A stretch of 64,000 bases of DNA, taken from an uncultured Sutterella sp. (GTDB taxonomy: Bacteria; Pseudomonadota; Gammaproteobacteria; Burkholderiales; Burkholderiaceae_F). The notes below the pieces were generated by a model that ran no database searches, had not been told where the DNA came from, and was given only the letters and a program-made list of their open reading frames with translations. Shown here one piece after another: positions 4,778-27,010 of this stretch. A program made the position numbers and the translations under genes. The stretch lies in assembly GCA_949282745.1 (NCBI GenBank), contig CASDQM010000041.1, positions 1-64,000 of the forward strand. The letters run 5' to 3'. Each line of letters starts with the position of its first letter. The first letter of the stretch is position 1.

Positions 4778-6028
4778 ATGAGTGAAGGTATTGAGGTCGC
4801 GAAGAAGCTTCCCGTGACCGACGACATCCGCGAAGCCATGGCCACCATCCGCCGCGGCACCGACAGCTTCCTGATCGAGGAAGAGTTCGAGCAGAAGCTC
4901 GCCCGCTCGAAGGCGACGGGCAAGCCCCTGCGCTGCAAGCTCGGGCTCGACCCCACGGCCCCCGACATCCACATCGGGCACACGGTGGTGCTCAACAAGC
5001 TCCGTCAGCTCCAGGACCTCGGACATCAGGTGATCTTCCTCGTGGGCGACTTTACGGCCGCCATCGGCGATCCTTCGGGGCGCAACGTCACGCGTCCGCC
5101 CCTTTCGCGCGAACAGATCACGGCGAACGCCGAAACCTACCTCGCGCAGGCCGGCCACGTGCTCGACCTCGAGAAGACCGAAGTCCGCTACAACTCCGAA
5201 TGGTCCAACGCGCTCGGCTCCGTGGGCCTCATTCAGCTCGCCTCCCGCTACACGCTCGCGCGTCTGCTCGAGCGCGAAGACTTCGCCAAGCGCTACGCCG
5301 AAGAGCTCCCCATCGCCATGCACGAGCTTCTCTATCCCCTCATGCAGGGCTACGACTCGGTGGCGCTCGAGGCCGACCTCGAATTGGGCGGCTCCGACCA
5401 GCGCTTCAACCTGCTCGTCGGCCGCGAACTGCAGCGTCAGTACGGTCAGGAACCGCAGTGCATCCTGACGATGCCGCTTCTCGTCGGTCTCGACGGCCAG
5501 GTGAAGATGAGCAAGAGCAAGCACAACTACATCGGCATCACCGACGAACCCAACGACATGTTCGGCAAGGTCATGTCCATTTCCGACACGCTCATGTGGG
5601 ACTGGTACGACCTGCTCTCGCTTCGTCCCAACGACGAAATCGCCGCGCTCAAGAAGGAATGCGCCGAAGGGCGCAACCCGCGCGACGCCAAGGTGATGCT
5701 CGCCAAGGAAATCGTTACGCGCTTCCACAGCGCGGCCGCCGCCGATGGTGCCGAAGCCGAATTCGTCAACCGCTTCCGTCAGGGCGCGATGCCCTCCGAA
5801 ATTCCCGAAGTGACCGTTCCCGCGGGCGAAGAGGGGATTCAGATCGCCCGCATGCTCAAGGAAGCCGGGCTCGTTTCCTCGACGTCCGACGGCAACCGCA
5901 TGATCGAGCAGGGCGGCGTGCGCATTCAGGGCGAAAGCGTCTCGGACCGCACGCTTCGCTTCAAGGCGGGCGAAGAGCTCATCGTTCAGGTGGGTAAGCG
6001 CAAGTGGGCCAAGATTCATCTCGCCTGA
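4778..6028 (+). CDS. tyrS: Tyrosyl-tRNA synthetase
   Basis: A 416-residue class I aminoacyl-tRNA synthetase charging tRNA-Tyr. It carries the HIGH signature as DIHIGHT (65-68), the KMSKS loop as VKMSKSKHN (243-247), the tyrosine-pocket element GGSDQRFN and a C-terminal S4 RNA-binding domain (about 350-416). The HIGH form with proline-rich [11 protein letters not shown] is that of the TyrZ-like subgroup usual in betaproteobacteria. AAGGA sits 5 nt before the ATG. The 179-bp gap before it, shared with the divergent M23 gene, contains AT-rich patches but no promoter I can assign firmly. Followed 13 nt later by dtd. Confidence 0.97.
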
Positions 6029-6041
6029 CGGGAGAATCGAC

Positions 6042-6479
6042 ATGATCGTGCTTTTGCAGCGCGTCCGCGAAGCGAGCGTCTCCGTCGAGGGCAAGGTGGT
6101 CGGGCAAACGGGGCCGGGGTATCTCGCCCTCGTTTGCGCCGAAGCGGGCGACACGGACGAAAAGGCCGTGCGCGCGGCGGAAAAGACCGCCAAGCTGCGC
6201 GTCTTCGAGGACGAAGAGGGCCGCATGAACCGCACCGTCCTCGACGCGGGCGGGAGCGTGCTCGCCGTCTCGCAGTTCACGCTCGCCGCGGACACGCGCT
6301 CGGGCAACCGCCCGGGCTTTTCGCGCGCCGCGCCGCCCGCCGAGGGCGAACGTCTCGTCGGACGCTACGTCGAGACGCTCCGCGCGCAGGGACTCTCCGT
6401 GGAAACGGGCGTCTTCGGGGCGCACATGATGGTTTCGCTCGTCAACGACGGGCCGGCCACGTTTTGGATTCAGATCTGA
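6042..6479 (+). CDS. dtd: D-aminoacyl-tRNA deacylase
   Basis: A 145-residue cytoplasmic proofreading enzyme that removes D-amino acids (notably D-Tyr) or glycine mischarged on tRNA. The two active-site motifs are visible: SQFTL at 77-81 and a Gly-Pro motif NDGPAT near the C-terminus (GPAT instead of the usual GPVT). Length matches the family. It follows tyrS by 13 nt, which fits its role of correcting D-Tyr-tRNA made by that synthetase. Confidence 0.96.
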   Translation: MIVLLQRVREASVSVEGKVVGQTGPGYLALVCAEAGDTDEKAVRAAEKTAKLRVFEDEEGRMNRTVLDAGGSVLAVSQFTLAADTRSGNRPGFSRAAPPAEGERLVGRYVETLRAQGLSVETGVFGAHMMVSLVNDGPATFWIQI

Positions 6480-6495
6480 TTAAAGGGGGATTCGC

Positions 6496-7095
6496 ATGAA
6501 AATCGCATCCGCTTCGTTTGCCGAGGGCGCCTTCATCGCTCCGGAATTCGCGTACGGCCGCATCGGGGAAAACGGTGCGACGGAACGTTCCGAAAACCGC
6601 AATCCGGAACTCCACTGGACGGACGTTCCCGAAGGCACGAAGAGCTTCGTCGTGCTGTGTCTCGACGACGACGTCCCGACCGACCGTCAGACGAAGATGG
6701 GCGACGGCCTTCTGAGCGTCACGCAGCCCCGCCGCCGTTTCGTGCACTGGGTGCAGGCGAACATTCCGGCCGAGGTCGAATCGATTCCCGAAGGCTTCCT
6801 CACGGGCGAACAAAAGCGAAACGGCGCCTTCGGACGTCCGGGCGTCAACGACTACGTCGGCAACGCCATGCCCGGACCCGACGGCACGGGCCTCGGCTAC
6901 GACGGTCCCTGCCCGCCCTTCTTCGACGCGCGTTGGCACTACTACCGCTTCTCGGTGTTGGCGCTCGACTGTGAACTCACGGATCTTCCCGAGGTGTTCC
7001 GTCTCGCCGACGTGGAGGAACGCATCGCCGGCCACGTGTTGGCCACGGCCGAAACCGTGTGCCGCTACACGCTCAATCCCGCGCTTGCGAACTGA
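6496..7095 (+). CDS. PEBP / YbhB-YbcL family protein
   Basis: A 199-residue protein of the phosphatidylethanolamine-binding/Raf-kinase-inhibitor-like family. Diagnostic segments are NPELHWTDVPEG at the start, LCLDDDVPT (standing for the usual DPDAP ligand loop), RRFVHWVQANIP, GYDGPCPP and HYYRFSVLALD. It lacks a signal peptide, so it is probably cytoplasmic. Bacterial members have no agreed biochemical role. It is 16 nt downstream of dtd and ends at a strong terminator, closing the tyrS transcript. Confidence 0.88.
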   Translation: MKIASASFAEGAFIAPEFAYGRIGENGATERSENRNPELHWTDVPEGTKSFVVLCLDDDVPTDRQTKMGDGLLSVTQPRRRFVHWVQANIPAEVESIPEGFLTGEQKRNGAFGRPGVNDYVGNAMPGPDGTGLGYDGPCPPFFDARWHYYRFSVLALDCELTDLPEVFRLADVEERIAGHVLATAETVCRYTLNPALAN

Positions 7096-25372: not shown

Positions 25373-26542
25373 TCAGAAGGCGAAGCCGACCGAGAGGGCG
25401 AAGTCGACGGGCATCGCGCGGATGGCGTAGTCGTCGTGGCGGTCCTCCGCAACGCCGGTGAAGCGCGCAAAGGAGGTCGTCATCGAAGCGTCGATGAAGA
25501 GGTTGTCCGTCACGGCGTAGGTGGCGCCCATCGAGAGAACCGGGTGGATGCTGTCGTCATCGTCGCCGCGGGAATTCTCGGCGCGCGAATAGCCGATGCC
25601 GCCGCCCGCGTAGAAGCGGAAGCTGTCGAAGGCGTCGATGTTGTACTGGATCTGCAGCGCGAGCATTTCGACGTCGAGATCGTATTCGCCCGGACCCGCC
25701 GCACGCGTGACCGCGTGGGTCGACTTGCGGTAGGAGAGGTCCGTCGCCCAGCTGCGGCCCGAGTAGTGGCGCCAGCCCACGTGCCAGGACGTGTCGCTGT
25801 CGACGCGCGAGGGGGAGTGTTCCTCGCCGTTGTCGGTGCGGGTGAAGCCGTAGCCGCCGTAAACGAAGTCGCTGTTCTTCGCCCAGGGGCTCGTCGCGGG
25901 GAGCGGCATCTTGCGGCTCTGGACGTCGTCGAACGTGAACGAGCTGTAAAAGAAGAAGACGTTCGTGAACGGGATGAAGGTGCCGTAGAGGCTGAACCAG
26001 TCGTTGCCGATCTTGGCGACCGGCAGCGGCAACGGAGCGGGCAGATAGTAGTAGTCGCCGCGGACCGTGATCCCGGCGAGGTAGCCCGCGCCGTAGTGCC
26101 AGCCCGTGTTGAGAATCGGATAGCGGGCCACCCAGGAGTAGCCGACCATCGGTTCGATGCGGTAGTTGGAGTCGACGAAGTTCACGAGGAAGAACATGCG
26201 TTCGTTCCCGCGTTCGTCAATCACCTGACGGGCAAGCCCCATGCCGAAGGGATAGCCGTTTTCCTGGTCCTTGTTGTCCCAGTCCCAGCGCGGGTGATTG
26301 GTGTAGGTAGGCAGCACGAGGAGCGTCCTGCCCTCTTCCATGATGTACTCGGAGCCGCGCTTCGTGTCTTCCCAGAAACCTTCCCAGGATCCGTCGCGCT
26401 CGGCGGACGAACGGGCGAGGCCGGCGGGCGTCGTGTCGACGACGGCCGAGAAAACGTCCGAAAGAGTGCCGGCCGAAGCCGAGCCGAGAAGGGCGGCGCA
26501 GCCCAGAGCTGCCAGTGCGGAACGCACGGTGGCGTGTTGCAT
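25373..26542 (-). CDS. PagP-like lipid A acyltransferase fused to a second outer-membrane beta-barrel
   Basis: A 389-residue exported protein: signal peptide about 1-24, then two domains. Residues about 51-202 match PagP (lipid A palmitoyltransferase): YTNHPRWDWD supplies the catalytic His (83), and NFVDSNYRIEPMVGYSW supplies the Asp-Ser pair (124-125), 41-42 residues on, close to the spacing in E. coli PagP (His33, Asp76, Ser77). Matching structural stretches are GYPFGMGLARQ, GWHYGAGYLAGITVR and LPAPLPLPVAKIG. Residues about 223-389 are a second barrel-like domain with alternating polar/hydrophobic strands, YAGGGIGYS and a final strand ending in Phe (VGFAF), like OmpW/OmpX-type barrels. E. 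coli PagP stops after the first domain. ATG 26542 has GGAG at good spacing. It probably acts in the outer membrane. Confidence 0.8.
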   Translation of the reverse strand: MQHATVRSALAALGCAALLGSASAGTLSDVFSAVVDTTPAGLARSSAERDGSWEGFWEDTKRGSEYIMEEGRTLLVLPTYTNHPRWDWDNKDQENGYPFGMGLARQVIDERGNERMFFLVNFVDSNYRIEPMVGYSWVARYPILNTGWHYGAGYLAGITVRGDYYYLPAPLPLPVAKIGNDWFSLYGTFIPFTNVFFFYSSFTFDDVQSRKMPLPATSPWAKNSDFVYGGYGFTRTDNGEEHSPSRVDSDTSWHVGWRHYSGRSWATDLSYRKSTHAVTRAAGPGEYDLDVEMLALQIQYNIDAFDSFRFYAGGGIGYSRAENSRGDDDDSIHPVLSMGATYAVTDNLFIDASMTTSFARFTGVAEDRHDDYAIRAMPVDFALSVGFAF

Positions 26543-26688: not shown

Positions 26689-26993
26689 GTGAAAGGCGAG
26701 CGGACGATCGTCGGCGGGCAACCGCGGGAGGAAAGTCCGGACTCCGCAGGGCGCCGTAGCAGGTAACACCTGTCCGCCGTGAGGCGCGGATTAGAGCAAC
26801 AGAGACGAGCCGACTTCGGGTCGGGTGAAACGGGCAATCTCTACGGGGAGCAACATCAAATAGGCGGCCAACGGATCGGCCCGATCCGGCCGCGGGTAGA
26901 TGGCTTGAGGCGTTGCGCGAGCAACGTCCTAGATGAATGATCGTCACTCGGGGTCACCCGGGAACATAATCCGGCTTACAGTTCGGCTTTCAC
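26689..26993 (+). ncRNA. rnpB: RNase P RNA (bacterial class A)
   Basis: The catalytic RNA that matures tRNA 5' ends. Universal landmarks are present: GAGGAAAGTCCGG at 26728-26740 (CR-I), GCAGGTAACACCTG (J/P region), GAGCAACAGAGA, GGTGAAACGGGC, AGATGAATGAT at 26931-26941 and CCGGCTTACAG near the 3' end (CR-V). The ends were set by the P1 helix: GTGAAAG at 26689 pairs with CTTTCAC at 26993 and the helix continues with one mismatch for 13 positions. At about 305 nt it is shorter than the 377-nt E. coli RNA, so some peripheral helices must be reduced. Confidence 0.93.
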
Positions 26994-27010
26994 GCGCCGA
27001 TTTTCTTGCG

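What the first reader, a model, noticed from the sequence alone, without database searches (positions are those of the whole stretch)
25373..26542. PagP catalytic barrel fused to a second outer-membrane barrel
Residues 51-202 carry the PagP His-Asp-Ser set (H83, D124, S125) with nearly the same spacing as E. coli PagP, while residues 223-389 form a separate barrel-like domain ending in an aromatic strand. PagP is normally a single 8-strand barrel of about 160 residues. A tandem two-barrel protein raises the question of whether the second unit gates substrate, binds a partner or senses the outer leaflet. Its strong own terminator and signal peptide argue that it is expressed as one chain.
Basis: partly seen in the sequence, partly recalled or inferred. 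Interest (0 to 1): 0.72.

Follow-up and report, generated by a model that had tools for sequence, protein, structure and literature searches.

The report
PagP enzyme fused to second barrel
A gut Sutterella carries a surface enzyme that probably attaches fatty acids to the cell's own endotoxin, and here, as in related genomes that keep it, the enzyme is joined in one chain to a second small membrane barrel of unknown role: an unusual but genuine protein.

Summary
Window 25373-26542 (minus strand, 389 aa) encodes a PagP domain (PF07017, E 2.4e-24) with H83/D124/S125 aligned to the E. coli triad, then a second outer-membrane barrel domain (PF13505, E 6.3e-10). It is no assembly accident: 40 of 67 family genomes (10 of 18 genera) carry the full-length fusion, the triad is present in 40 of 41 aligned rows (the other is cut by a stop), and a PF07017 search of the same genomes found no stand-alone PagP. 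In the order sample 50 genomes outside the family hold PagP and none has a frame with both barrels. The second barrel is nearest OmpW (hhalign 99.1%) but lacks OmpW's gate prolines. A weak AlphaFold model (pLDDT 55) shows 8+8 strands. Best explanation: a PagP-type acyltransferase tethered to a closed accessory barrel that aids assembly or placement, or tunes activity; catalysis and the partner's role are untested. Multibarrel outer-membrane proteins are a described class, so this is a new variant of a known kind.

The parts
25373..26542 (-). Whole gene: PagP barrel plus second 8-strand barrel, 389 aa with stop codon
26471..26542 (-). Signal-peptide-like start, residues 1-24
   Evidence: sequence; A24 at least 90% conserved; no signal-peptide program run
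26393..26470 (-). N-terminal extension, residues 25-50, with a TxPxG motif (T37 35 of 38, P39 37 of 38, G41 35 of 38)
   Evidence: the pattern matches 1 of 38 solo PagPs
26336..26386 (-). Predicted helix before the PagP barrel, residues 53-69, at the place of PagP's N-terminal helix
25931..26329 (-). PagP barrel, residues 72-204, eight predicted strands (72-82, 99-108, 114-123, 129-143, 148-159, 173-179, 183-189, 196-203)
   Evidence: PF07017 E 2.4e-24; model; Foldseek PagP TMt 0.74-0.76
26294..26296 (-). H83, aligned with E. coli PagP H33
26168..26173 (-). D124-S125, aligned with E. coli PagP D76-S77
25871..25930 (-). Linker, residues 205-224; the stretch 205-226 is 20-23 residues long in 37 of 40 rows and 30-33 in 3
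25376..25870 (-). Second barrel, residues 225-389, eight predicted strands, ending in F389 (40 of 40 rows)
   Evidence: PF13505 E 6.3e-10; hhalign to OmpW set 99.1%; model; F389

Best explanation
It is an outer-membrane PagP-type acyltransferase whose 8-strand catalytic barrel is followed, after a short linker that must lie on the periplasmic side if both barrels have 8 strands, by a second closed 8-strand barrel of the OMP_b-brl superfamily, closest to OmpW. Shown by sequence: one conserved chain, the aligned triad, most of the prolines recalled as PagP's lateral-gate prolines, purifying selection on both halves, joint inheritance. Inferred: the N barrel takes an acyl chain from an outer-leaflet phospholipid and puts it on lipid A or another lipid acceptor, as PagP does; the second barrel is neither a second enzyme nor an OmpW-type lateral-gate channel but a permanently attached partner that fixes the enzyme's assembly, orientation or neighbours and may tune its activity, a cis counterpart of the effect that OmpA has on E. 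coli PagP in trans.
For: PF07017 and PF13505 above cut-off on one chain. Triad aligned and present in 40 of 41 rows, the other being the piece after G058's in-frame stop. Fusion in 40 of 67 genomes, 10 of 18 genera; all 41 PF07017 matches at E 0.001 or better in those genomes lie in it; in the 37 family genomes all 27 second-barrel matches lie in it. Prolines aligned with E. coli P28, P50, P127, P144 kept in 34, 30, 38, 36 of 38 (P127 matched to P174 by the alignment). Five of five second-barrel matches among the 24 sampled genomes outside the family are OmpW proteins; hhalign 99.1% to OmpW, 97.1% to OmpA-type, about 1% to PagP. OmpW's gate prolines absent (described in PMC2993939, section read). 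dN/dS in four pairs 97-98% identical: N 0.011-0.133, C 0.028-0.114. N and C distances agree, Mantel r 0.884, 0 of 2000 permutations as high. AlphaFold 8+8 strands; the top four Foldseek rows are PagP and OmpW single barrels, TMt 0.74-0.77. OmpA lowers PagP activity to about 35% in liposomes (PMC7617971, section read).
Against: No activity is shown. The ruler residue (E. coli G88) is A 16, S 9, G 7, Q 4, T 2 of 38, so the acyl chain or even the reaction may differ. The NCBIfam PagP equivalog is matched only below its cut-off (90.5 of 155 bits). The structure model is weak (pLDDT 55, pTM 0.43) and its alignment held E. coli PagP and OmpW fragments, so fold matches are partly circular. OmpW and OmpA-type sets match each other at 97.7%, so the OmpW link is one of degree within a superfamily. 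The role of the second barrel rests on analogy: OmpX, also a small barrel, did not change PagP activity, and AlphaFold2 predicted no confident OmpA-PagP contact in that paper. 27 of 67 family genomes show no PagP.
Confidence: 0.6

Rival explanations
1. The second barrel is a hydrophobic-ligand conduit of the OmpW/AlkL kind that delivers or removes lipid substrate next to the PagP lateral gate.
For: Closest relatives are OmpW-family proteins; best solved match AlkL E 6.9e-7. OprG, of the OmpW family, has a hydrophobic channel with a lateral opening (PMC2993939).
Against: The prolines said to make that opening are absent: 0 of 39 rows at columns 270-281, which hold the place of the first, and at most 4 of 39 at the columns aligned with the LPP stretch (columns matched by eye on the hhalign output). 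Conserved polar residues (D237, R258, D268, H276) suggest a closed interior, an inference.
Confidence: 0.15
2. The second barrel is only a passive anchor or assembly module: it carries the invariant terminal F389 that BAM would read, and the PagP barrel follows it into the membrane.
For: F389 in 40 of 40 rows; the residue aligned to PagP's own terminal F is F in only 11 of 40.
Against: Solo PagPs are not strict there either: 18 of 38 end in F, Y or W, Fisher p 0.10 against the fused ones. 16 of 165 positions of the second barrel are at least 90% conserved, more than a bare anchor seems to need.
Confidence: 0.3
3. The PagP half is catalytically dead or repurposed, for instance as a lipid-binding scaffold.
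For: Varied ruler position; equivalog model below cut-off.
Against: Triad in 40 of 41 rows; of 29 invariant columns of alignment A1 (38 rows), 23 lie at residues 71-186 of the PagP half.
Confidence: 0.1
4. Not a fusion of two barrels: assembly error, or one large 16-strand barrel.
For: Only low-confidence models exist.
Against: Forty genomes carry it; the two halves match different 8-strand families. Among the 50 Foldseek rows shown of 979, larger barrels reach at most 0.23 by query length and 0.34 by target length, against 0.74-0.77 by target length for the best PagP and OmpW rows.
Confidence: 0.04

Closest known systems
PagP (lipid A palmitoyltransferase), E. coli 1thq/3gp6/1mm4
   Same: N half: PF07017 match, H-D-S triad, most gate prolines, predicted helix plus 8 strands
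   Different: Carries a second barrel, an N-terminal extension with a TxPxG motif, and a varied ruler residue
OmpW / OprG / AlkL family (PF03922)
   Same: Second half: closest profile match among the sets compared, 162 columns; 8 predicted strands
   Different: No gate prolines; the window's own copy does not reach PF03922 at E 0.1; fused to an enzyme domain
Multibarrel outer-membrane proteins (GfcD; the class of Solan et al. 2021)
   Same: More than one barrel in a single chain
   Different: GfcD is predicted as 12 and 13 strands with a periplasmic domain between (passages); here 8 and 8 strands with a short linker, and one barrel is of an enzyme family
OmpA-PagP effect in E. coli (PMC7617971)
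   Same: A small barrel in the same membrane changes PagP activity
   Different: In trans and non-covalent there; in cis here and untested

Membership tests
PagP (PF07017) | Profile match over the curated cut-off | tested here: met
   85.8 bits against 24
PagP (PF07017) | His-Asp-Ser set at aligned positions | tested here: met
   H83/D124/S125; 40 of 41 rows, the 41st being the piece after a stop
PagP (PF07017) | NCBIfam equivalog cut-off (NF008271) | tested here: not met
   90.5 of 155 bits; so a PagP homologue, not shown to be functionally equivalent
PagP (PF07017) | Single 8-strand barrel that ends the chain | tested here: not met
   The chain goes on for 185 residues after the PagP barrel
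PagP (PF07017) | Palmitate transfer to lipid A | not testable with these tools
   needs an assay
OmpW family (PF03922) | Profile match | tested here: inconclusive
   22 of 39 second barrels match at E 0.1 or better, best 7e-14; the window's own copy does not; hhalign of the profile 99.1%
OmpW family (PF03922) | Conserved prolines at the lateral opening (Pro69, Pro94 of OprG) | tested here: not met
   0 of 39 at columns 270-281 and at most 4 of 39 at the LPP columns (placed by eye)
OMP_b-brl (PF13505) | Profile match over cut-off | tested here: met
   39.9 bits against 28.7 for the whole protein; 39 of 39 rows match at E 0.1 or better
Multibarrel outer-membrane proteins | Two complete barrels in one chain | tested here: inconclusive
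   Two families on one chain, 8+8 strands in a weak model

The most novel reading that the evidence does not exclude
The second barrel is a sensor or gate in cis: a surface ligand or membrane state acting on it switches the PagP barrel on or off, so that these bacteria carry a self-contained, ligand-controlled outer-leaflet acyltransferase whose acyl length also differs from palmitate.
Probability: 0.12. Interest if true: 0.75.

Novelty: new variant of a known kind. Interest (0 to 1): 0.45.

Why it matters
PagP is a textbook single-barrel enzyme and a model for barrel folding. A lineage in which every copy detected here is fused to a second barrel is a natural experiment on how BAM handles two barrels in one chain and on how a neighbouring barrel alters an outer-membrane enzyme. 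It also bears on the lipid A of gut commensals, and the varied ruler residue predicts an acyl length that can be measured.

Tried and rejected
Single-sequence AlphaFold gave pLDDT 34.6 and was not used. A first permitted alignment put OmpW halves on the PagP domain and was not folded; shortened OmpW rows were used instead. A pattern-based scan of viral contigs confirmed no relative of the fusion; a scan with the second barrel's profile could not be run. The idea that the internal beta-signal was lost, judged against solo PagP, is not significant (18 of 38 against 11 of 40, p 0.10). Origin by merger of neighbouring genes: in 34 loci outside the family with a PagP profile hit, of 35 fetched, no ORF of 90 or more codons in the 6.5-7 kb taken matches the second-barrel profile at E 0.01, so no intermediate was seen. 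Origin of the second barrel by duplication of PagP: rejected, hhalign about 1%. A defence role: no PADLOC match at E 0.01. The pdb_via library was not available.

Full report
What is there. Window 25373-26542, minus strand, encodes 389 residues. Pfam finds PagP (PF07017) at residues 67-195, E 2.4e-24, and an outer-membrane barrel domain (PF13505) at 227-357, E 6.3e-10, both over cut-off. Against solved structures the only matches at E 10 or better are two E. coli PagP sequences, E 4.1e-16 and 8.9e-16. The printed alignment puts H83, D124 and S125 on E. coli H33, D76 and S77 (numbering checked; the catalytic role of these residues is recalled). The NCBIfam PagP equivalog is matched at 90.5 bits, below its cut-off of 155.

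Is it real. In the window's family, as the tool groups genomes, 40 of 67 genomes in 10 of 18 genera hold a match that starts at residue 1-36 and ends at 386-389 of the query, 41 matches in all, one genome holding two. These counts include the window's own genome. The one relative found in named genome contigs, 98% identical, is an uncultured Sutterella; it appears to be the same contig as G060, judged by equal contig length. A search with PF07017 alone finds the same 40 genomes and 41 places at E 0.001 or better, each in a frame of 380 residues or more, one of them (G058) read through a TAG; so no stand-alone PagP was found in the family. In an alignment of 41 rows, the window protein and 40 others, the three catalytic residues are present in 40; the 41st row is the piece after that TAG. 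Later alignments dropped rows: A1 (38 rows) leaves out that piece and two near-copies (L002, L021), A2 (39 rows) leaves out the two near-copies, and the 40-row set leaves out the piece.

Outside the family. In the order sample 58 of 399 genomes hold a PF07017 match, 8 of them in the family; the 50 others have open frames of 72-417 residues, one of them (G251) below the family's cut-off. The only frame over 300 (G159, 417) has its PagP at the very end. Of 35 loci fetched from 34 of those 50 genomes, 34 gave a PagP profile hit, and none has a relative of the second barrel in the stretch taken. In the phylum sample 25 of 398 genomes hold a match; apart from the window's own, frames are 99-252 residues. 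So the fusion was seen only in this family; a fusion broken by a frameshift would not have been noticed. In a quick tree of 40 fused and 38 solo rows the fused ones need two changes because one fragmentary solo row (L107, 12% of columns filled) falls among them; one clade is not rejected (p 0.577), and the branch that holds all fused rows and that fragment has SH-aLRT 97.

The two halves travel together. N and C distances correlate at r 0.884 (0 of 2000 permutations as high). In four pairs at 97-98% identity dN/dS is 0.011-0.133 for N and 0.028-0.114 for C; among the 30 pairs printed, farther ones are saturated or reach 0.31 for N and 0.30 for C. Positions at least 90% conserved: 35 of 134 in the PagP barrel, 16 of 165 in the second. 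In the 37 family genomes of the relatives search, all second-barrel matches (27 places in 26 genomes) lie in the fusion gene. In 13 of 19 loci fetched, hemL lies downstream on the same strand within about 0.9 kb; in the other 6 it was not found, two of these (L036, L043) ending within about 150 bases (which looked only for six window proteins).

Second barrel. All 39 copies scanned match PF13505 and 22 match OmpW (PF03922) at E 0.1 or better, best 7e-14; the window's own copy is not among the 22. Of 24 sampled genomes outside the family, 5 have a match, and all 5 are OmpW proteins. A profile search of solved structures ranks AlkL first (E 6.9e-7), then NspA (7.9e-4), OmpW (0.007), OpA60 (0.038) and OmpA (0.047). 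hhalign gives 99.1% and E 6.6e-19 to ten OmpW proteins, 97.1% and 5.5e-11 to nine ORFs taken at OmpA_membrane matches (not checked one by one), and about 1% to PagP; the OmpW and OmpA sets match each other at 97.7%, E 1.6e-12. So it belongs to this superfamily and is nearer OmpW. But the prolines that line OprG's lateral opening (PMC2993939, section read) are absent at the columns I matched to them by eye. I therefore call it OmpW-like, not an OmpW member.

Structure. The single-sequence model failed. With eight permitted rows the model has pLDDT 55 and pTM 0.43, a helix at 53-69, eight strands at 72-203 and eight at 225-388. Foldseek's first four rows are PagP and OmpW (TMt 0.74-0.77); OmpA entries reach 0.66-0.74, OprG 0.61, the NMR OmpW 0.50, NspA 0.81; larger barrels among the 50 rows shown of 979 reach at most 0.23 by query length and 0.34 by target length. 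The alignment held E. coli PagP and OmpW fragments, so this is partly circular; the OmpW rows covered residues after 300, with 5-6 stray residues elsewhere, so strands from 225 to 300 had no OmpW guide. Two barrels are likely, not proven.

How it may work. The triad is kept, and the prolines aligned with E. coli P28, P50, P127 and P144 are kept in 34, 30, 38 and 36 of 38 (P127 corresponds to P174; their gate role is recalled). The position of the E. coli ruler residue G88 is A, S, G, Q or T (16, 9, 7, 4, 2 of 38). From recall, larger residues there shorten the accepted chain, so a chain shorter than palmitate is predicted; the primary papers are not held. In liposomes OmpA lowers E. coli PagP activity to about 35% while OmpX does not, and AlphaFold2 gave no confident contact (PMC7617971, abstract and one section). 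I infer that the fused barrel is a permanent partner of that sort, or an assembly aid; nothing here tests it.

What is known. [quoted passage not shown] GfcD is one (PMC11494523 and PMC8592465, passages). The survey they cite (Solan et al. 2021) is not held and may already list a PagP architecture; from memory, its abstract says that combinations with eight-stranded barrels prevail. Searches listed no paper on a PagP fused to another barrel in nature; I saw 20 of 48, 20 of 1,417, 3 of 3, 3 of 3, 25 of 468 and 5 of 5 papers, as listings, and the library leaves out most subscription journals.

Lipid A context. A 2016 study reports by BLAST that two Sutterella species lack LpxL and LpxM (PMC5080374, passages). 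Here 66 of 67 family genomes match the late acyltransferase family PF03279, the window's genome with two adjacent strong matches and one weak. Species and methods differ, so this is a caution rather than a contradiction.

Noticed in passing
26692-26994 (+): Bacterial RNase P RNA (RF00010, 223 bits) lies divergently just upstream of the fusion gene.
   Followed up: no
G057, locus L033:4215-5363 and 5646-6794: Two tandem full-length copies of the fusion gene, 86% identical, beside hemL.
   Followed up: partly
G058, locus L009: The fusion gene has an in-frame TAG inside the PagP match: a broken gene or a sequence error.
   Followed up: no
G000:C47:333892-335603 (outside the window): Two adjacent late lipid A acyltransferase matches (PF03279), although a paper reports that two Sutterella species lack LpxL and LpxM.
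   Followed up: partly
26393-26470 (-): Residues 25-50 form an N-terminal extension with a conserved TxPxG motif; the pattern matches 1 of 38 solo PagPs. Role unknown.
   Followed up: partly
PF07017 matches in family f79 of the phylum sample: Weak PagP matches in 7 genomes of one distant family, frames 99-252 residues.
   Followed up: no
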